A DNA stretch of 64,000 bases, from the NCBI RefSeq assembly GCF_014873535.1, contig NZ_JADBEF010000001.1, forward strand, positions 9,052,001-9,116,000. Reading direction: 5' to 3'. This DNA is from Nonomuraea africana (GTDB lineage Bacteria; Actinomycetota; Actinomycetes; Streptosporangiales; Streptosporangiaceae). Every line of letters starts with the position of its first letter. Within the stretch, counting starts at the first letter, position 1. Positions 28,083-36,259 of this stretch are shown here, one piece after another. The translations under genes were made by a program, and so were the position numbers. The notes under the pieces were generated by a model that saw nothing but the letters and a program-made list of their open reading frames with translations, was not told the DNA's origin and did not search any database.

Positions 28083-29327
28083 TCAGGTCCAGGCCAGCCG
28101 CTGCCTCAGCAGGCGCTGCTGCGCCGGGTTGGCGGTCAGCGCCAGCGCCCGCTCATCGCAGGCGCGCGCCTGCTCGGCCCGGCCGAGCCCGCGCAGCAGC
28201 TCGGCCCTGGTGGCGTGCAGCAGAGGGTAGCGCGCCAGCACCTCCTGCAGGTCGTCGAGTTCGGCCAGCGCCGCCTCGGGCCCCTGGGTGTAGCCCAGGG
28301 CGATGGCCCGGTGCAACCGGGTGACCGGCGAGGGCGCCAGGTGCAGCAGCATGTCGTACAGGACGAGGATCTGCGCCCAGTCGGTGGCCTCGAACGAGGC
28401 GGCTTCGGCGTGACAGGCCGCGATCGCCGCCTGCAGCTGGTACGGCCCCGGCCTGCGATGCGCGCGGGCCGTGCGCACCAGCAGCGCGCCGGCCTCGTCG
28501 ATCGCCGTCCGGTCCCACAGGGAGCGGTCCTGGTCGGCCAGCAGCACCAGCTCCTCGTGGGCGTCGAAGCGGGCCGGCCCGCGTGCCCGGTGCAGCCGGA
28601 TCAGCGCCAGCAGCCCGACCACCTCGGGCTCGCCCGGCATCAGGCCCGCCAGCAGCGCGGCCAGCCATTCCGCGTCGTCGACCAGGTCGCGGGCCTGGGC
28701 CCGCTCGGCCGTACTGGACAGGTAGCCCTCGTTGAACAGCAGGTAGATGACCGCCAGCACGGCCTGCAACCGCGTCGGCAGCTCGTCAGCGGCGGGGACG
28801 CGGTACGGGATGCCGGCTTCGGTGATCTTCTTCTTGGCGCGGGTGATGCGCTGGGCCACTGTGGCCTCGGGCACGACGAACGCGGCGGCGATCTGCTGCG
28901 TCGACAGTCCGCAGACCACGCGCAGCGTCAGCGCGATCTGCGCCGCCGGCGCCAGCGCGGGATGGCAGCAGGTGAAGATCAGCCGTAGCCGGTCGTCGGT
29001 CTGGGCCGGTTCCGGCCAGCGCAGCTGGGCCAGCTTGGCCCGATAGTTCGACTCGCGCCGCAGGACGTCCAGGCCGCGCCGCCGGGCCACGGTGAACAGC
29101 CACGCGTCCGGCCGGTCGGGGATGCCCTCGACGGGCCAGCGGCGCAGCGCGGTCTCGATCGCGTCCTGCACCAGGTCCTCGGCGGCCGAGAAGTCACCCA
29201 GCAGCGAGATCAGGCCGGCGGCGAGCCGGCCCGCGTGCTCACGTACCACGCGGGCCAGCACCTCGCCGCTGTCGTCCCGCCCGCGCCCGGCCACGCGGTC
29301 GGCGGGCCCGCCTGCCGGCTCGGTCAT
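28083..29327 (-). CDS. ECF42-type sigma factor with C-terminal TPR-like domain
   Basis: The 414-aa protein has sigma regions 2 (SAAEDLVQDAIETALRRWPV) and 4 (STQQIAAAFVVPEATVAQRI) in the first 190 residues, then a DUF6596/TPR-like extension (LYLLFNEGY-type motif as IYLLFNEGYLSS, and LYDMLLHLAPSPVTRLHRAI). This is the ECF42 group, which is encoded next to YCII/DGPF-domain proteins, as here (overlap ATGA at 29324). The extension, not an anti-sigma factor, is thought to control activity. A second ECF42 gene lies at 47087-48352. Confidence 0.9.
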   Translation of the reverse strand: MTEPAGGPADRVAGRGRDDSGEVLARVVREHAGRLAAGLISLLGDFSAAEDLVQDAIETALRRWPVEGIPDRPDAWLFTVARRRGLDVLRRESNYRAKLAQLRWPEPAQTDDRLRLIFTCCHPALAPAAQIALTLRVVCGLSTQQIAAAFVVPEATVAQRITRAKKKITEAGIPYRVPAADELPTRLQAVLAVIYLLFNEGYLSSTAERAQARDLVDDAEWLAALLAGLMPGEPEVVGLLALIRLHRARGPARFDAHEELVLLADQDRSLWDRTAIDEAGALLVRTARAHRRPGPYQLQAAIAACHAEAASFEATDWAQILVLYDMLLHLAPSPVTRLHRAIALGYTQGPEAALAELDDLQEVLARYPLLHATRAELLRGLGRAEQARACDERALALTANPAQQRLLRQRLAWT

Positions 29328-29665
29328 GACACCGGACGGATCTCCACGATCGGGCAGGCCGGCCAGGAGCGGGCCAGCTTCAGCGCCTCGTCCAGGTCGG
29401 CCACCTCGACCTCGGCGAATCCGCTGATCACCTCCTTGCCCTCCACGAACGGCCCGTCGGTGACGACAGGCTCCCCGCCGCCCTGCAGCCGCACCGTGGT
29501 CGCGGTGTGCACCGGGGCCAGATGGGTGTGGTGGGTGATCTTGTCGGCGTGGTCGGCGAACCAGCGGCCGACCGCCTCATAGGCGGCCCGCTGTTCCAGC
29601 TCGCCCATGGCCTCCAGTTCCTTGGCGAACTGCTCGGTCTCCACGAACATCAGCACGTACTTCAC
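29324..29665 (-). CDS. YCII/DGPF-domain protein
   Basis: From the GTG at 29665 (GGGAGG upstream) the product is 113 aa with the family core TDGPFVEGKEVISGFAEVEV and an early KYVLMFVET strand. The YCII fold is a ferredoxin-like alpha/beta barrel. Several such genes flank ECF42 sigma factors and are thought to be part of that regulon. It lies between a VOC protein gene upstream and the sigma gene downstream, in one operon. Confidence 0.9.
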   Translation of the reverse strand: MKYVLMFVETEQFAKELEAMGELEQRAAYEAVGRWFADHADKITHHTHLAPVHTATTVRLQGGGEPVVTDGPFVEGKEVISGFAEVEVADLDEALKLARSWPACPIVEIRPVS

Positions 29666-29726
29666 GTCTCGGCCTCCCGCTTCGTCTGTAGCTGTTGTAC
29701 CCGGCGAGGTGCTGCGCCGGACCGGT

Positions 29727-30125
29727 TCAGCCGGTCGGCACGGCCGCGTACAGGTCGACGCCGTTGCCGTCGGGGTCGGCCACGGTGGCGTACCGCATGC
29801 CCCAGAAGGCGTCGAACGGCTCGGCCAGGCCCCGGTAACCGGCCTGGGTGAGCTCGGCGTACTTGGCGTCGACCCCGGCGGGCGTCTCGAACTCGAAACA
29901 CAGCAGGGTGCGCGGCCCGCCGTCCGGCGCCCTCCAGCCGGGCAGGAACGGGGTGCGGAAGCTCTCGGTGTCGAGCATGACGTGCAACCCGCCGGGCAGA
30001 TCGCAGCCGGCGTGCTCGGGCGAGTGCTCGTCGATCTTGAACTCCAGCCCGAGGCGGGCATAGAAGCCGATCGAGGCCCGCATGTCGCTGACCACGATGT
30101 CGATCGTGTTGAGTGTCGGATTCAT
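29727..30125 (-). CDS. VOC/glyoxalase-family protein
   Basis: The 132-aa single-domain protein starts at the ATG at 30125. Two beta-alpha-beta-beta-beta halves are seen, with TIDIVVSDMRASIGFYARLG at the start and YATVADPDGNGVDLYAA at the end, where Glu is usual and Asp takes the metal-ligand place. It belongs to the fosfomycin-resistance/glyoxalase superfamily; the substrate is unknown. It heads the VOC-YCII-ECF42 operon, a common arrangement. Confidence 0.85.
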   Translation of the reverse strand: MNPTLNTIDIVVSDMRASIGFYARLGLEFKIDEHSPEHAGCDLPGGLHVMLDTESFRTPFLPGWRAPDGGPRTLLCFEFETPAGVDAKYAELTQAGYRGLAEPFDAFWGMRYATVADPDGNGVDLYAAVPTG

Positions 30126-30281: not shown

Positions 30282-30632
30282 TCACCGGGCTGGGGTGGGC
30301 TCGGCGAGGGGGGCGAACAGGGCGCCCAGCTTGTTCACCGCCTCGGGGATGATCCGGTAGTAGACCCAGGTGCCCCGGCGCTCGCCGTCGATCAGGCCCG
30401 CGGTGCGCAGGACCTTGAGGTGGTGGGAGATGGTGGGGGCGGTCAGGTCGAAGGCGTCGGTGAGGTCGCACACGCAGGCCTCGCCGCCGGTGTGGGAGCC
30501 GATCATCGACAGCAGTCGCAGGCGTACCGGGTCGGCGACCGCCTTGAGCATGACCGCCAGGTCGGCCGCGTCGGTCTCCGACAGCGGCTCGCGTGCGATC
30601 GGCGCGCAGCACTGGATCGTGACGGCGGTCAT
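30282..30632 (-). CDS. ArsR-type metalloregulator
   Basis: The 116-aa protein has the winged helix (LTAPTISHHLKVLRTAGLID) and two Cys sets: Cys8-Cys9 near the N-terminus and Cys53/Cys55 in ACVCDL. E. coli ArsR uses the CVC set in helix alpha3; the Corynebacterium glutamicum regulator uses an N-terminal CC pair plus a Cys at about 55. This protein could support either site, so As(III)/Sb(III) sensing is likely. It is last in the arsenical-type operon but also has its own promoter and operator at 30645-30668. Confidence 0.85.
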   Translation of the reverse strand: MTAVTIQCCAPIAREPLSETDAADLAVMLKAVADPVRLRLLSMIGSHTGGEACVCDLTDAFDLTAPTISHHLKVLRTAGLIDGERRGTWVYYRIIPEAVNKLGALFAPLAEPTPAR

Positions 30633-30644
30633 GCGGCACTCCTT

Positions 30645-30668
30645 ACTTCGAAATTCGTCGAAATTATA
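30645..30668 (-). promoter_or_regulatory. arsR internal promoter and operator
   Basis: On the minus strand a perfect TATAAT (30668-30663) overlaps the MFS stop codon. It is followed by a direct repeat AATTTCGACG/AATTTCGAAG that also contains TTCGA-N6-TCGAA, just upstream of the arsR ribosome site (AAGGAG). Repressor bound there would cover the transcription start. Confidence 0.65.
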
Positions 30669-31923
30669 TCCGATGGTAAGCGACCAGGGCCGACGCGGCG
30701 ATCGCGCAGGCGACGGCCACCGCTCCCATGACCCACCCATAGCCGACCGCTTGGGCCAGCGCGACCGCGCCCAGTGGGGCCAGGGCCTTGTCGGTGACGG
30801 AGAAGGCGGCGATGCGGCCCGACAGTGAGGCGTACGCCGCCGCGTCGTACCGCTGCAGGAGCAGATGCGGCAGGGTGATGGAGGCGATGCCGAAGCCGAG
30901 CCCGAATCCCAGCACGCAGCCGATCGCTCCCGGGACCGTGTGCCCGACCAGCGGCAGCAGCAGGACGGCGACGCCTTGCAGGGCGAAGATCGCTGCGGCG
31001 ATGAGCGCGGCGGGCAGGCGGCGTTGCAGGCCGGTGGTGAGCAGGCGTCCGGTCACCGACAGCACGCCCAGGAGCCCGGCCAGTGTCGCGGCCAGAACGG
31101 GGGAGTGGCCGAGGTGGATGAGGTAGGTGATGAGCAGGACGGCCATTACGGCCGCCGCGCCGCCGTTGGCGGTGAAGGCGATCACCAGCAACCAGAACGG
31201 CCGCCGTCGGGTGGCTGCCTTGACGATGTCGGCGCGTTCTTCTGCTGTGGCGGGCTTCTGCTTGGGGTGGGTACGGCGGCGCACGACGAGCGCGTGGAGG
31301 GGGATTGCGGCCACGCCGTAGATCAGCGCCAGGATGACGAGGGCCTGGCGCCAGCCGTGCCACTCCACCAGCAGGCCGGTGAGCGGCAGGAAGATCGTGG
31401 AGGCGAACCCGGCGACGACGGTGAGCGCGAGCAGCGCGTTGGCCCGGCCGCGCGCGTGAGTAGGGCCGTCGAACCAGCTGACGATGACGGCGAAGGCCGA
31501 CTCGTAGAGCACCATGGCGCAGGCGACGCCGATCGCGGCGAACACCGCGTACAGCTGGGCCAGGCTGTCCACCCGCGACCAGGCCAGCACAGCGACCGTG
31601 CCGAGGATCGATCCGGCGGTCATGAGGCCGCGGCCGCCACGGGCGTCCAGCCGGCGGCCGACCAGCGGCGCGCACAGGGCGGTGATCAGGATCGACAGGG
31701 TGAGCGCGGCGGCGATCTGGGCGTTGGTCGCGTGCAGGTCGTGGGCCATGGGGGTGAGGAAGACGGAGAAGGCGTAGTAGAGCACGCCGTACCCGATGGT
31801 CTGGGTGACGGCCAGCGCGGCGACGATCCGCCGGCCGTGGCCGGAACGCGGCTGACCGCCGCCCCGGCTCTGCGGGGCGGCGGTCTCGGCGGTGGAACTC
31901 ACAATGTCGATCCCCGCTTTCAA
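30664..31923 (-). CDS. MFS exporter in arsenical-type operon
   Basis: The 419-aa protein has 12 predicted membrane segments and the MFS loop motif after TM2 (LVGRRLDARGGR). The start overlaps the flavoprotein stop (ATGA). Related exporters are found with ArsR and flavin monooxygenase genes in actinobacteria. The exported compound would be the product or substrate of the flavoprotein; an arsenical or antimonial is the likeliest, by context only. The N-terminal 30 residues are polar and cytosolic, with no Cys pair. Confidence 0.8.
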   Translation of the reverse strand: MKAGIDIVSSTAETAAPQSRGGGQPRSGHGRRIVAALAVTQTIGYGVLYYAFSVFLTPMAHDLHATNAQIAAALTLSILITALCAPLVGRRLDARGGRGLMTAGSILGTVAVLAWSRVDSLAQLYAVFAAIGVACAMVLYESAFAVIVSWFDGPTHARGRANALLALTVVAGFASTIFLPLTGLLVEWHGWRQALVILALIYGVAAIPLHALVVRRRTHPKQKPATAEERADIVKAATRRRPFWLLVIAFTANGGAAAVMAVLLITYLIHLGHSPVLAATLAGLLGVLSVTGRLLTTGLQRRLPAALIAAAIFALQGVAVLLLPLVGHTVPGAIGCVLGFGLGFGIASITLPHLLLQRYDAAAYASLSGRIAAFSVTDKALAPLGAVALAQAVGYGWVMGAVAVACAIAASALVAYHRI

Positions 31924-33320
31924 CCGCAGCAGCCGCCGCCGTCGGTAGTGGCGCCCACGGTGGCCAGGGGCAGCGGAGTGGCCAGCAGGCCGCCGCTGAT
32001 GCCGGTGGCCAGGCCGACGCGCTGCTCCTGAGCCGCGGCCAGGCTGGAGGAGCAGACGCCGGTCTCGGGCAGGTCGAGCTGCACGTCGCGGGCAGCCTCC
32101 CAGTCTCCGGCGACGGCCGCGACGACGGAGCGGACCTGCTCGTAGCCGGTGGCCATCAGGAAGGTCGGGGCGCGGCCGTAGCTCTTGACCCCGACGGCGT
32201 AGTAGCCGGGCTCGGGGTGGGAGAGCTCGTCGACGCCATGGGCGGGCACCGTGCCGCAGGAGTGCTGGTTGGGGTCGATGAGCGGGGCCAGCTGTCGGGT
32301 GGAGTCGAGGATCGGGTCGAGATCGAGGCGTAGCTCGGAGGCGATGGAGTGGTCGGGACGGTAGCCGGTCGCGGCCACGATGCGGTCCACGGTGACGGAC
32401 TGCTCGGCGCCGGACGGGTCGCGGCTGACCACGGTCACCTGGTCGCCGCTTCGGGTGACGGAGTGGGCGAAGAAGCCGGTCATTAGCCGGATGCGGCCCG
32501 ACTCGACGTGGGCGCGCAGGCGGGTGCCGAGCGCGCCGCGTGCGGGCAGCGCGTCGGCCGCGCCGCCGCCGTAGGTACGGCTGGCGCCGCCCGCGCGGAT
32601 CGCCCAGGTGATCTGGGCGTCCTCCAGCTGGGCGAGAGCGAGCAGGGTGGTGGCGGCGGAGTGGCCGGCGCCCACGACGAGGGTGTGCTTGCCCTCATAG
32701 GCTTCGCGGTCGGCGCCGAGCACGTCGGGCAGGGCGTGGTCGACGTCGACGGTGTTCTCGCCGTACGCGGGCAGGCCGCTGGCGCCCAGCACGTTCGGGC
32801 TGGTGTAGGTGCCGGAGGCGTCGACGATCGCGCGGGCCCGCAGCTCCTCACCGCCCTCGAGACGGATCAGGAACGGCACGTCTTCGCGGCCGTTGGTACG
32901 GACCCGGTCGTAGCCGAGGCGGCTGATCGCCGTCACCTTGGTGCTGAGCCGTACCTTGTCGCCGAACAGCTTGGCCAGCGGAGCCAGATAGTCGGAGATC
33001 AGCTCGGCGCCGGTGGGCAGCCACTCGGGGTCAGGCTCGCTCCAGCCGTCGGCCTCCAGCAGGCGCTTGGCGGCGGCGTCGATGTTGAACCTCCACGGGC
33101 TGAAGACCCGGACGTGGCCCCACTGGGCGACCGAGGCGGCCACCTGCTCGCCTGCCTCCAGGACCAGGAAGTCCTGGCCGCGCTCGGCCAGGTGGGCGGC
33201 GGCGGCCAGCCCGACCGGACCGGCACCGATCACCACGACCGGCAGCGCGCTGGTGGCGCCGGAGGTCGCGATCTGCTCAAGCTCGAGGGACGCGGTGGTG
33301 CCGCAGCAGCTGTCGCTCAT
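31920..33320 (-). CDS. FAD/NADPH monooxygenase-like protein with Cys-Cys at both ends
   Basis: The 466-aa protein has an FAD Rossmann motif (VVIGAGPVGLAAAAHLAERG), an NADPH motif (VVGAGHSAATTLLAL) and the ATG motif (VAATGYRPD), as in flavin monooxygenases/ArsO-type enzymes. Unusually, a Cys pair lies at each terminus: MSDSCCG (Cys5-Cys6) and GGGCCG (Cys464-465). Such pairs could bind a soft metal(loid). The neighbours ArsR, MFS exporter and a Cys-containing 45-aa peptide make a role in arsenical oxidation or handling likely. Direct evidence for the substrate is lacking. Confidence 0.85.
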   Translation of the reverse strand: MSDSCCGTTASLELEQIATSGATSALPVVVIGAGPVGLAAAAHLAERGQDFLVLEAGEQVAASVAQWGHVRVFSPWRFNIDAAAKRLLEADGWSEPDPEWLPTGAELISDYLAPLAKLFGDKVRLSTKVTAISRLGYDRVRTNGREDVPFLIRLEGGEELRARAIVDASGTYTSPNVLGASGLPAYGENTVDVDHALPDVLGADREAYEGKHTLVVGAGHSAATTLLALAQLEDAQITWAIRAGGASRTYGGGAADALPARGALGTRLRAHVESGRIRLMTGFFAHSVTRSGDQVTVVSRDPSGAEQSVTVDRIVAATGYRPDHSIASELRLDLDPILDSTRQLAPLIDPNQHSCGTVPAHGVDELSHPEPGYYAVGVKSYGRAPTFLMATGYEQVRSVVAAVAGDWEAARDVQLDLPETGVCSSSLAAAQEQRVGLATGISGGLLATPLPLATVGATTDGGGCCG

Positions 33321-33347
33321 GATGGCTTCTCCTGGATCTTTGAGGGC

Positions 33348-33485
33348 TTAGCGGAAGCGCAGGACGGAGGTGCGCGAGCGGTCCACGGCGGCGGCCGCGC
33401 GGCAGGCGGCATCGCACACCACGCCGCGCGCCTCGTCGAGCGTGACGTCCTGAACCCGGCGGTGACGACGGAACAGAGCGCGCAT
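33348..33485 (-). CDS. 45-aa Cys-x3-Cys peptide, first gene of arsenical-type operon
   Basis: A perfect AGGAGGT lies 7 nt before the ATG at 33485. The product (MRALFRRHRRVQDVTLDEAR...) contains CDAAC, which could bind a metal, and a basic start and end. It is 27 nt upstream of the flavoprotein and downstream of the duplicated operator at 33498-33559. I do not know a named family. Coding support is the ribosome site, spacing and GC-rich third positions. Confidence 0.6.
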   Translation of the reverse strand: MRALFRRHRRVQDVTLDEARGVVCDAACRAAAAVDRSRTSVLRFR

Positions 33486-33497
33486 CGCGCACCTCCT

Positions 33498-33559
33498 GTT
33501 TAGAAGCTTGTCGAATTAGTAGCCAGCTTGCCTCACTGATTAGAGATCTGTCAAATTAG
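33498..33559 (-). promoter_or_regulatory. paired ArsR-type operators
   Basis: Two 22-nt sites, 40 nt apart, match at most positions: on the minus strand CTAATTTGACAGATCTCTAA (33559 down) and CTAATTCGACAAGCTTCTAA (33519 down). The first contains a TTGACA -35. Both share AATT(T/C)GACA with the arsR operator. Confidence 0.6.
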
Positions 33560-33652
33560 AGGAGCGCCTAATCTGCGAGGTGTAGGCATGGGAAGCCTCA
33601 GCCGCTGCTCGGCTCGCAGAACTTTGCGGCTGCTGAGAGCATCCAACTCGCT

Positions 33653-36259
33653 ATGGGGGATGCGCTGATCGACGGAGACCCGCAGCGGCTCGGCGGCTAC
33701 TGGCTGGCCGGACGGGTCGGCGAGGGCGGACAGGGAATCGTCTACGAGGGCTACGACGCCGAGGGCGGGCGGGTCGCGATCAAGGTGTTGCGCGGCGACC
33801 CCTCGACCCAGCCGCGCCTGGCCAAGGAGGCCACCGCGGCCCGCCGTGTGCCGGCCTTCTGCACCGCCAGGGTGCTCGACGCCGACCTGGAGGGGCCGCG
33901 GCCGTACATCGTCTCGGAGTACGTCGAGGGGCCCAGCCTGCGGCAGGCGGCCAGGGTGTTCCGCGGCGACGAACTGCACCGGCTGGCCACGGCCATGGCG
34001 ACCGCGCTGACGGCCATCCACGACGCGGGCGTCGTCCATCGCGACCTCAAGCCGGACAACGTGCTGCTCGGCCCTGACGGTCCGCGCGTCATCGACTTCG
34101 GGGTGGCCCGCACGCTGGAGATGTCGCTCACCTCGGCGCAGCTGCTGGCGGGCACGCCCAGCTACATGGCGCCGGAGGTGTTCTCCGGCGAGCGGGCGGG
34201 CATGCCGGCCGACGTGTTCGCCTGGGGCGCCACCGTGCTGTTCGCCGCGACCGGGCAGGACCCGTTCCGGGCCGACTCGCTGGGCGCGGTCATGCATCGC
34301 GTGCTGTCCCACGAGCCCGACCTGTCGCCGCTGCCCGCCCAGCTGCGGGCCCTGGTGGCCGCCGCGCTCGCCAAGGACCCGCGGCAGCGGCCCACCTCCA
34401 AGGAGCTGCTGCTCGCGCTGGTCAGCGGCGACGGCCTCGACACCGCCAGGCTGCTCGCCCAGGGCGCGGGCTCGGCCGCCGCCATGGCGCCCCACGGTGA
34501 CCAGCCGGCCCGCGATCCCGCCCTCGGCACGCTCGCCGAGGACGCCTACGCCGCGCTCGGCCCTGCCGAGCGGGAGCTGGTGCCCGAGCTGTTCCTGCGC
34601 CTGGTGACCGTCACCGACCAGGGCGACCTCACCGTACGGCAGGCCGCCCGCCACCAGCCCGGCGAGATTCTCGGGATGGCGGCCACCCCGTCCGGCCGCA
34701 CGCTCGCGATCGCCACCGAAGAGGGCGGGGTCCGGCTGTGGGGCACGGCGACGGGCGCCGCCCGCGAACCGCGATACCGGCTCTTCGAGGGCGCGGGCGA
34801 GTCCGACTTCTCCTTGTCGTACAGCGACTCGGAGGATGTCGTGGCGGTGCGTATGGGGCAGGGCGCCACGTTCTGGAACACCCGCACGGGAGCGAAGACA
34901 GAGGTCCCCACGCTCGGCGGGGACATGGTGGTGACGGCCGACGGCAAGACGGCCGTGTACACGCTGATGGGCTCCGCTCTGCGCCGCCAGTCGTTGCTCG
35001 ATGGACGGGCAACGACGTTGTGGAACTGCTCGGGGATATGTCAGAACTTCGCGCCGAGCCCGAATGGGGAGAAGCTTGCCGTCTCAGGGCCGAATCAGGA
35101 CATTCTGCTTCTTTCTCTCCGTTCGGGTAAGGAGTCAGATTCCAGCCTGACCGACTGGAAGGGCGGCGCCATCGCCTGGAGCCCGGACGGCGCGGCCGTC
35201 GCCGCGCTGGACGACTCGGGGCTCCAGGTGTGGCGGGCCAGTGACGCCACGCTGGTGCTCGACGAGCCCGTCGCGCCGGGCGCCGGTCACCTCGCGTTCG
35301 ACCCCGACGGTCACACCCTCCGCTACCTCGCGGGAGACACCGTGGTCAGCGCGCAGCTCGACCTCCGGCCCCGCCGTGGCCCGCGTGGCGACCTGCTCAG
35401 CCCCGACGGCGGCCATCTGCTGGCCGGCCGCAAGGTGCGCCACCTTGCCACGGGCAAGACGATCACCCTGCCGGACGAACCCCAGTACCCGCTCGTCTTC
35501 AGCGGGAACGGCTCGGCCCTCGCCGTGGGCGGCGACGCCACCGTCTTCGTCCACGACACGACGACGGGCAGGCGACTGGCCGAGCTGCCCCTGGTCGACG
35601 AGTCGCCCCAGGGCCTGGCCTTCAGCCCCGACGGCACGCGCCTGGCCGTCTCGGCGCAGACCTACATCCGCATGATCGAGCTGCCCGGCGCCAAGCAGGT
35701 CTGGCGGGCGCCGGCCGACATGGCCGACGAGCTCGCCTTCACGCCCGACGGGCGCTACCTGTCCATCGGCGAAAGCTTCCTGGACGCGGCGACCGGGCGT
35801 CCGGCCGTCCCGCGGCCTCTTGGGCCGGTGGTGCGGGGGCTGGGCTTCTCCACCGACGGCACCGTCTTCGGCTGGCCCGACGGCTCGGCCCGGATGGCCT
35901 TCTGGCGGCGGGGGGCGGCGGAGCCGTCCTCGGCGCCGCTGCGTGACATGCCGGTCGACCCGAAGCTGACCTTCTCGCCGGACGGCTCCCTCGTCACGGC
36001 CGTCAACCACGAGGAAATGCGGGTGTACGACGTCGCCTCCGGAGTCGTGATCGCCGCCATCAAAGACCCCCTGATCTCCCAGGCAGGCTTCTCCGCGGGC
36101 AGGCTGCTGGTCGTCGTCGACGGGAAGCTGGCCGAGTATCCGATGGATCCGGCCGTGGTGGCGGCGCGGGTGTGCGCGAGGGCAGGGCGGTCGTTGAGCG
36201 AGGCGGAGTGGGTGGCGTACGTGCCGGGCCTGCCGTACAGGAAGGTCTGCGCGCGGTGA
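33653..36259 (+). CDS. Ser/Thr protein kinase with WD40-like propeller
   Basis: The 868-aa protein has an N-terminal kinase domain (glycine loop GEGGQGIVYEG, Lys44 in VAIKVL, HRDLKPDN at 129-136, DFG at 148-150, a short activation segment ending GTPSYMAPE). Residues about 295-335 (AEDAYAALGPAERELVPELF, LRLVTVTDQGD) match the helical linker seen between STAND NTPase and WD40 domains, though the NTPase itself is absent. Residues about 345-850 are WD40-like blades (SPDGxxL and VxLW motifs). No membrane segment is seen, unlike PknB-type kinases. The start ATG at 33653 has only a weak ribosome site. Confidence 0.9.
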   Translation: MGDALIDGDPQRLGGYWLAGRVGEGGQGIVYEGYDAEGGRVAIKVLRGDPSTQPRLAKEATAARRVPAFCTARVLDADLEGPRPYIVSEYVEGPSLRQAARVFRGDELHRLATAMATALTAIHDAGVVHRDLKPDNVLLGPDGPRVIDFGVARTLEMSLTSAQLLAGTPSYMAPEVFSGERAGMPADVFAWGATVLFAATGQDPFRADSLGAVMHRVLSHEPDLSPLPAQLRALVAAALAKDPRQRPTSKELLLALVSGDGLDTARLLAQGAGSAAAMAPHGDQPARDPALGTLAEDAYAALGPAERELVPELFLRLVTVTDQGDLTVRQAARHQPGEILGMAATPSGRTLAIATEEGGVRLWGTATGAAREPRYRLFEGAGESDFSLSYSDSEDVVAVRMGQGATFWNTRTGAKTEVPTLGGDMVVTADGKTAVYTLMGSALRRQSLLDGRATTLWNCSGICQNFAPSPNGEKLAVSGPNQDILLLSLRSGKESDSSLTDWKGGAIAWSPDGAAVAALDDSGLQVWRASDATLVLDEPVAPGAGHLAFDPDGHTLRYLAGDTVVSAQLDLRPRRGPRGDLLSPDGGHLLAGRKVRHLATGKTITLPDEPQYPLVFSGNGSALAVGGDATVFVHDTTTGRRLAELPLVDESPQGLAFSPDGTRLAVSAQTYIRMIELPGAKQVWRAPADMADELAFTPDGRYLSIGESFLDAATGRPAVPRPLGPVVRGLGFSTDGTVFGWPDGSARMAFWRRGAAEPSSAPLRDMPVDPKLTFSPDGSLVTAVNHEEMRVYDVASGVVIAAIKDPLISQAGFSAGRLLVVVDGKLAEYPMDPAVVAARVCARAGRSLSEAEWVAYVPGLPYRKVCAR

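What the first reader, a model, noticed from the sequence alone, without database searches (positions are those of the whole stretch)
30282..33559. Arsenical-type operon with a 45-aa CxxxC peptide and a flavoprotein capped by Cys-Cys at both ends
Gene order is small Cys peptide, flavoprotein (Cys5-Cys6 and Cys464-Cys465), MFS exporter, ArsR with both known types of As-binding Cys sets. The 45-aa gene is missed by ordinary annotation. Terminal CC pairs suggest metalloid capture and hand-over; the peptide could be a chaperone. There is no ArsC, ArsB or Acr3 here, so the chemistry may differ from classic arsenate reduction and efflux, for instance organoarsenical oxidation.
Basis: partly seen in the sequence, partly recalled or inferred. 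Interest (0 to 1): 0.7.

Follow-up and report, generated by a model that had tools for sequence, protein, structure and literature searches.

The report
Small thiol peptide in arsenic operons
An arsenic-detoxification operon of a soil actinomycete begins with a tiny two-cysteine protein that turns out to belong to a scattered family with no known relatives in the libraries searched, sitting next to different arsenic-handling enzymes in two bacterial phyla.

Summary
At 30282-33560 (minus strand) lie a 45-aa CxxxC peptide, an FAD/NADPH flavoprotein with C5-C6 and C464-C465, an ArsK-like MFS transporter and an ArsR, behind two operator-like repeats whose exact pattern occurs nowhere else in the 9.69-Mb genome.

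The core is of a known kind: arsR-flavoprotein-arsK also occurs on an Ensifer plasmid (51% identical flavoprotein) and resembles the published ArsV/ArsW and ArsK systems, which I saw only through passages in other papers.

The new part is the peptide. Its family has no convincing Pfam, NCBIfam or PDB match. The fuller form is FCxxCGxVC[DT]xxCR; the window form kept CxxxC only. Of 52 peptide-anchored loci, 48 have an ArsR within 5 kb (2-7% by chance), and in 48 the next typed gene is the flavoprotein, ArsI, ArsM or an arsR. Chloroflexota loci agree.

Best reading: a small protein that binds trivalent arsenicals and buffers them or hands them to the enzyme encoded beside it. Family and association are shown; binding and hand-over are inferred. 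Relatives have lost it, so it is an accessory.

The parts
33348..33485 (-). 45-aa CxxxC peptide (C24, C28), first gene of the operon
   Evidence: family; profile match 5.7e-17 (the profile includes this sequence)
33492..33497 (-). Shine-Dalgarno AGGAGG of the peptide, 6 bases before its ATG
   Evidence: read directly from the sequence
33500..33515 (-). operator-like repeat 2, TTCGACAAGCTTCTAA, ending 2 bases before the Shine-Dalgarno
   Evidence: a relaxed pattern lies by the peptide in 42 of 53 loci. That it is an ArsR operator is inferred
33540..33555 (-). operator-like repeat 1, TTTGACAGATCTCTAA, containing a TTGACA-like element
   Evidence: no full sigma-70 site was found by the scan
31920..33320 (-). 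FAD/NADPH flavoprotein, 466 aa; C355, C423, C464, C465 invariant in 7 of 7; optional C5-C6
   Evidence: Pfam PF13738 74 bits; below cut-off for the ArsO and YpdA models; alignment; fold class (poor model)
30664..31923 (-). MFS transporter, ArsK-like (190 bits against a cut-off of 400); overlaps the flavoprotein stop or starts at GTG 31902
   Evidence: 31% identical to an annotated ArsK
30282..30632 (-). ArsR repressor, 116 aa, C8-C9 and C53, C55
   Evidence: NF033788 92.8 bits, cut-off 55 (scanned as the longer 152-aa frame); closest solved sequence 6j0e

Best explanation
The locus is an ArsR-regulated detoxification operon for trivalent arsenicals (most likely methylarsenite and other organoarsenicals, perhaps antimonite). 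Steps: (1) metalloid binds the cysteines of ArsR, which leaves the two operators at 33500-33555 (inferred from family and sites). (2) One transcript peptide-flavoprotein-MFS-arsR is made (inferred from gaps of 27 bases, overlap or 17, and 31 bases, which are seen). (3) The peptide, through its CxxxC pair at a helix start, binds a trivalent arsenical and buffers it or hands it to the neighbouring enzyme (inferred). (4) The flavoprotein, an NADPH/FAD monooxygenase-like enzyme whose Cys-pair tail and C355/C423 could hold the metalloid, oxidises it to the less toxic pentavalent form (inferred). (5) The MFS exports substrate or product (inferred from ArsK likeness). The peptide is an accessory module shared by several arsenic enzymes rather than a part made for this flavoprotein alone.
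For: Loci found by the peptide alone in three searches: 48 of 52 have ArsR within 5 kb; the next typed gene on the same strand is flavoprotein 26, ArsI 15, ArsR 4 (ArsM follows in 3; the fourth is at a contig end), ArsM 3, MFS 1, none 3 (L086 and L144 are one contig, so 51 distinct; in L089 and L090 another small gene comes before the flavoprotein). Chance, estimated from the window's genome: 2% with its 20 ArsR genes above cut-off, 7% with all 64 matches. Chloroflexi 54-19 carries peptide-flavoprotein-MFS-ArsR in the window's order. In 251 Chloroflexota genomes 5 of 6 matched places are in ars loci; two of these are in the seed genome, so 3 of 4 are new. The CxxxC cysteines are kept in 181 and 180 of 182 database relatives, the next Arg in 180, the preceding CxxC positions in 80 and 79 (candidates had to share words with the query, so this leans high). 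The exact operator pattern, read off this site, occurs only here in the genome. One ArsI neighbour scores 209 bits against a cut-off of 116. A four-Cys relative is modelled as hairpin (16-25) and helix (27-48) with Cys at 18, 21, 25 and 29 (block pLDDT 63-78, pTM 0.37). An ArsM-like gene, which would make methylarsenite, is in the genome.
Against: No binding or activity data. The peptide is sparse: 10 of 25 genomes of the genus although 23 of 25 hold the flavoprotein at 1e-100, and 8 of 396 genomes across the phylum, own and one weak match included. Decayed remnants precede the flavoprotein in L097, L103 and L123. The first CxxC is lost in the window lineage, and one relative (L149) has lost the CxxxC too. 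Flavoprotein CC tails do not depend on the peptide (27 of 27 with it, 37 of 40 without). Both structure models are weak; the peptide's has no significant match.
Confidence: 0.5

Rival explanations
1. An ordinary arsR-ArsV-like-ArsK/ArsW-like operon; the peptide is a dispensable hanger-on without a part in metalloid chemistry, or on its way out.
For: Flavoprotein-MFS-ArsR occurs without the peptide: arsR-FAD oxidoreductase-arsK on an Ensifer plasmid, many loci; 122 plasmid records hold a flavoprotein relative; remnants in relatives.
Against: Protein-level conservation in two phyla and placement before three unrelated arsenic enzymes; in-frame selection signal.
Confidence: 0.2
2. A leader reading frame whose translation tunes expression of the next gene; the amino-acid sequence matters little.
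For: In the Actinomycetota loci it is usually the first frame after the operator-like repeats, often 25-60 bases before the next gene.
Against: Conserved residues around the motif, pN/pS below 1 only in this frame; in Chloroflexota L243, L244 and L245 it lies after arsR, not first; no terminator-like site near it in the window.
Confidence: 0.12
3. A mini zinc finger or regulatory subunit that binds ArsR or the neighbouring enzyme; zinc or no metal, not arsenic, is bound.
For: CxxC-x3-CxxxC with a hairpin-helix model; the best, not significant, fold match is the Sgf11 zinc finger (E 2.7).
Against: The window clade has two of the four Cys, and L146, L165 and L167 elsewhere also lack the first pair, so a four-Cys zinc site is not required.
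Confidence: 0.15
4. A thiol redox partner (electron donor or acceptor) for the neighbouring enzyme.
For: Cys pair beside a flavoprotein of a fold class that includes thioredoxin-reductase-like proteins.
Against: It also precedes ArsI and ArsM; the flavoprotein has V36 where the aligned YpdA chain has Cys in GGGPCG, and its sequence has no CxxC.
Confidence: 0.08

Closest known systems
ArsV / ArsW (flavin monooxygenase oxidising methylarsenite and Sb(III), plus exporter of methylarsenate)
   Same: flavoprotein and efflux protein together in an ars operon; likely the same chemistry
   Different: I could not compare sequences: the papers are not held and were seen only as passages and references in PMC10080717, PMC9144182 and PMC11719878; those passages name no peptide
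ArsK (arsenite/antimonite/methylarsenite MFS exporter)
   Same: MFS of the same family, same place after the flavoprotein as arsK on the Ensifer plasmid
   Different: 190 bits against a cut-off of 400; 31% identity
ArsO (NF040505)
   Same: NAD(P)H flavoprotein of ars loci
   Different: 50 bits against a cut-off of 425; ArsO-like genes lie beside many relatives as separate genes
ArsD metallochaperone (recalled)
   Same: proposed role: thiol carrier of As(III)
   Different: no Pfam or NCBIfam model is matched beyond stray single hits; 45 aa against about 120 (recalled); no ArsA pump typed here
DUF2703 CxxC protein before arsO in Rhodococcus aetherivorans (PMC6514093, passages)
   Same: small thiol protein before an arsenic flavoprotein
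   Different: described there as thioredoxin-fold family; our peptide has no such Pfam match

Membership tests
ArsR/SmtB metalloregulators (NF033788) | profile score above curated cut-off | tested here: met
   92.8 bits, cut-off 55
Rv2640c family ArsR (NF041413) | profile score above cut-off | tested here: not met
   106.3 bits, cut-off 155
ArsO (NF040505) | profile score above cut-off | tested here: not met
   50 bits, cut-off 425
YpdA bacillithiol disulfide reductase (TIGR04018) | profile score above cut-off, and Cys in the GGGPCG motif | tested here: not met
   59.6 bits, cut-off 339.9; V36 at that place
ArsV | sequence relation to the characterised protein | not testable with these tools
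   sequence and papers not held; no model of that name among the best 25 of 104 hits shown
ArsV | operon with arsR and an efflux gene (arsR is recalled for ArsV/ArsW) | tested here: met
ArsK (NF033733) | profile score above cut-off | tested here: not met
   190.2 bits, cut-off 400; the Ensifer neighbour scores 513
ArsD and other known small arsenic or metal-binding families | Pfam or NCBIfam match of the peptide | tested here: not met
   82 members scanned; seven families each hit by a single member, best E 0.00067, none arsenic-related; no PDB relative
Metalloid chaperone (by function) | binding and transfer of As(III)/MAs(III) | not testable with these tools
   needs protein work

The most novel reading that the evidence does not exclude
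The peptide is the first seen member of a general class of miniature metalloid carriers: 45-60-aa thiol proteins that serve at least three unrelated arsenic enzymes (flavin monooxygenase, C-As lyase ArsI, methyltransferase ArsM) in Actinomycetota and Chloroflexota, delivering trivalent arsenicals to the Cys-pair tails of such enzymes, a counterpart of ArsD that evolved separately.
Probability: 0.35. Interest if true: 0.75.

Novelty: new variant of a known kind. Interest (0 to 1): 0.55.

Why it matters
Arsenic operons are well mapped, yet an unnamed small protein recurs beside three different detoxifying enzymes in two phyla. If it carries trivalent arsenicals, it would show how cells move methylarsenite and arsenite safely between enzymes, and would give a compact arsenic-binding module for sensors or clean-up. 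It also offers a clear handle: one gene, 45 codons, two cysteines.

Tried and rejected
Considered and set aside: a chance frame; the flavoprotein as ArsO or as a YpdA-type disulfide reductase; a terminator-based leader (the one terminator-like site found is at 31241, on the other strand; the gap peptide-flavoprotein is 27 bases); a link between the peptide and the CC tail of the flavoprotein (27 of 27 with, 37 of 40 without; four incomplete frames, L084, L156 and a second frame each in L102 and L115, left out; the earlier counts used cruder rules and are replaced by this one); a four-Cys zinc site as a requirement. Led nowhere: tblastn of a peptide against plasmids (no match). Nine literature searches, of which searches were aimed at a small protein: no title or abstract start in the listings speaks of such a peptide; passages of four papers were read, none as a whole, and most subscription papers are not held. 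Flavoprotein model of low confidence (pLDDT 57.7, seven rows). Peptide tree (46 rows): context changes at least 10 times where 2 would do, but fewer than the 16.7 of shuffled labels, so context is partly inherited; 32 columns resolve little. The pN/pS test pools divergent copies and is coarse.
Full report
What is there. The window is G000:C1:9052001-9116000 of a 9.69-Mb genome; the closest named peptide relatives are from Nonomuraea. On the minus strand, from 33560 down to 30282, follow two 24-base direct repeats, 75% alike, a 45-aa peptide, a 466-aa flavoprotein, an MFS transporter and an ArsR. The peptide has AGGAGG six bases before its ATG; the flavoprotein starts 27 bases after the peptide's stop; the MFS overlaps the flavoprotein stop or starts 17 bases after it; ArsR follows 31 bases after the MFS. 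The pattern TTNGACANNNNTCTAA, which I read off these repeats, occurs twice in the window and twice in the whole genome without mismatch, both times here. A relaxed form lies between -160 and +60 of the peptide in 42 of 53 loci, against 0.004 per such stretch in the rest of those loci (Chloroflexi loci and L151 were left out, and one of the 11 misses, L142, is due to a wrongly picked peptide fragment).

The peptide family. The single sequence found six database proteins, an alignment of 22 found 112, one of 49 found 192 (120 listed). Among 182 relatives the two Cys of CxxxC are kept in 181 and 180, the next Arg in 180, and the positions of a preceding CxxC in 80 and 79; the candidate filter favours such words, so the figures lean high. 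The window's lineage has F-[DN]-E-x-x-G or L-D-E-A-R-G in place of F-C-x-x-C-G. Pfam and NCBIfam gave only stray single-member hits (82 members scanned) and the PDB no relative. Named holders include Nonomuraea, Streptosporangium, Planobispora, Micromonospora, Actinoallomurus, Amycolatopsis, Actinomadura, Actinocatenispora and Chloroflexi. It is sparse: 40 of 200 genomes of the order (four by weak partial matches), 10 of 25 in the genus, 8 of 396 across the phylum including the own genome and one weak match, 5 of 251 Chloroflexota including one weak match.

It is a protein. In 51 distinct copies, cut to 25 codons around the motif, pN/pS is 0.70 in frame and 1.05 and 1.44 in the other two; in 13 copies from the genus and close kin it is 0.56, with differences per codon position 0.25, 0.21, 0.38.

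It belongs to arsenic operons. I took loci found by the peptide alone: 29 of the 31 places (the two not fetched, in G007 and G027, lie just before a flavoprotein by their coordinates), the 7 foreign places, and 16: 52, of which L086 and L144 are one contig. ArsR lies within 5 kb in 48; the four without are L092 (next to ArsI), L136 (orphan), L137 (remnant before an MFS) and L151 (weak match). The next typed gene on the strand is flavoprotein 26, ArsI 15, ArsR 4 (ArsM after it in three, contig end in the fourth), ArsM 3, MFS 1, none 3. In L082, L089 and L090 a CCG-repeat protein that my references did not type comes first. My ArsR typing was by reference proteins at E 1e-8; by chance 2% of sites would lie that near to one of the 20 ArsR genes above the model's cut-off in the window's genome, 7% if all 64 matches count. 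Further check: Chloroflexota loci L243-L245 show arsR-peptide-arsM twice and arsR-peptide-flavoprotein once, while the weakest match, L246, has no ars gene beside it; the profile used held at least one metagenome row much like L243, so this is not wholly independent. Chloroflexi 54-19 repeats the window's order peptide-flavoprotein-MFS-ArsR. On a tree of 46 peptides the context changes at least 10 times where 2 would do, against 16.7 for shuffled labels: re-paired several times, yet partly inherited; the tree is poorly resolved.

The flavoprotein. It is of the two-dinucleotide-fold class shared by YpdA, ferredoxin-NADP reductases and N-hydroxylating monooxygenases (TM-scores are low because the model is poor). 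It scores far below the ArsO and YpdA models and has Val where the YpdA chain has Cys. Its DRIVAATGYRPDH resembles the ATGY motif of such monooxygenases (recalled). C355, C423, C464 and C465 are invariant in 7 of 7 aligned proteins; among 67 complete related frames 64 carry CC in the C-terminal tail, and the three without, the window genome's own paralogue among them, have no peptide. On an Ensifer plasmid the order is arsR-FAD oxidoreductase (51% identical)-arsK. Passages in other papers report ArsV as an oxidase of methylarsenite and ArsW as exporter of methylarsenate (PMC10080717), ArsV as an oxidase of organic arsenicals with a cited title that adds antimonite (PMC11719878), and ArsW among efflux proteins (PMC9144182). 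I therefore call it ArsV-like in likely function, not ArsV.

How it most likely works. ArsR releases the operators on binding trivalent metalloid; peptide, flavoprotein and exporter are made together; the peptide's CxxxC pair, two thiols about one helix turn apart, holds a trivalent arsenical (two thiols suit methylarsenite; recalled chemistry) and buffers or passes it on; the flavoprotein oxidises it; the MFS exports. Shown: gene order, conservation, association, operator-like sites of a pattern unique in the genome. Inferred: every chemical step.

Against it. The peptide is often absent, and in L097, L103 and L123 only what looks like a decayed remnant is left before an intact flavoprotein. 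CC tails do not follow the peptide. A leader frame is made less likely by protein-level conservation and by the Chloroflexota loci in which arsR comes before it. A four-Cys zinc site fits the model of the fuller form (hairpin and helix; distances were not measured) but not the two-Cys forms.

Known or new. The operon core is known in kind. Nine searches of the held literature, four of them aimed at a small protein, listed no paper that speaks of the peptide in title or abstract start; the library lacks most subscription papers, so this is not proof of absence. I rate it as a new variant of a known kind.

Noticed in passing
L082, L089 and L090, right after the peptide: A second small (about 75 aa) protein built of several CC pairs (GGF.GDPA...CCG...SGAGCCG); two of the three were scanned and have no Pfam or NCBIfam match. 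Its tail resembles those of the flavoprotein and ArsI. Metallothionein-like?
   Followed up: partly
G000:C1:9013102-9014424 (L158, L237): A 63% identical flavoprotein paralogue without the Cys-pair tail, beside ArsO-like and ArsR genes about 70 kb from the operon.
   Followed up: partly
G000:C1:3346000-3349700 (L238): A separate region with two ArsR, Acr3 (451 bits), an ArsC and an ArsM-like gene, the genome's classic arsenic locus.
   Followed up: partly
L149 (same phylum, other class): A relative in the same place before ArsM whose CxxxC is lost and which carries CGC instead.
   Followed up: no
L084, L087, L088 and several of L160-L168: N-terminal extension rich in cysteines (SCCGVSACCTDAEQ...GCGC) on the flavoprotein of Actinomadura and similar genomes.
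   Followed up: no
L136 (G165:C15:180895-181038): An intact peptide with a look-alike of the operator that misses the relaxed pattern, and no typed arsenic gene in the 9.4 kb fetched.
   Followed up: no
window 28083-30125, minus strand: ECF sigma factor with DUF6596, and a VOC protein next to ArsR; looks like an unrelated sigma-factor cluster.
   Followed up: no
window 33653-36259, plus strand: 868-aa protein kinase-like frame with repeats, divergent from the operon (reading from sequence only).
   Followed up: no
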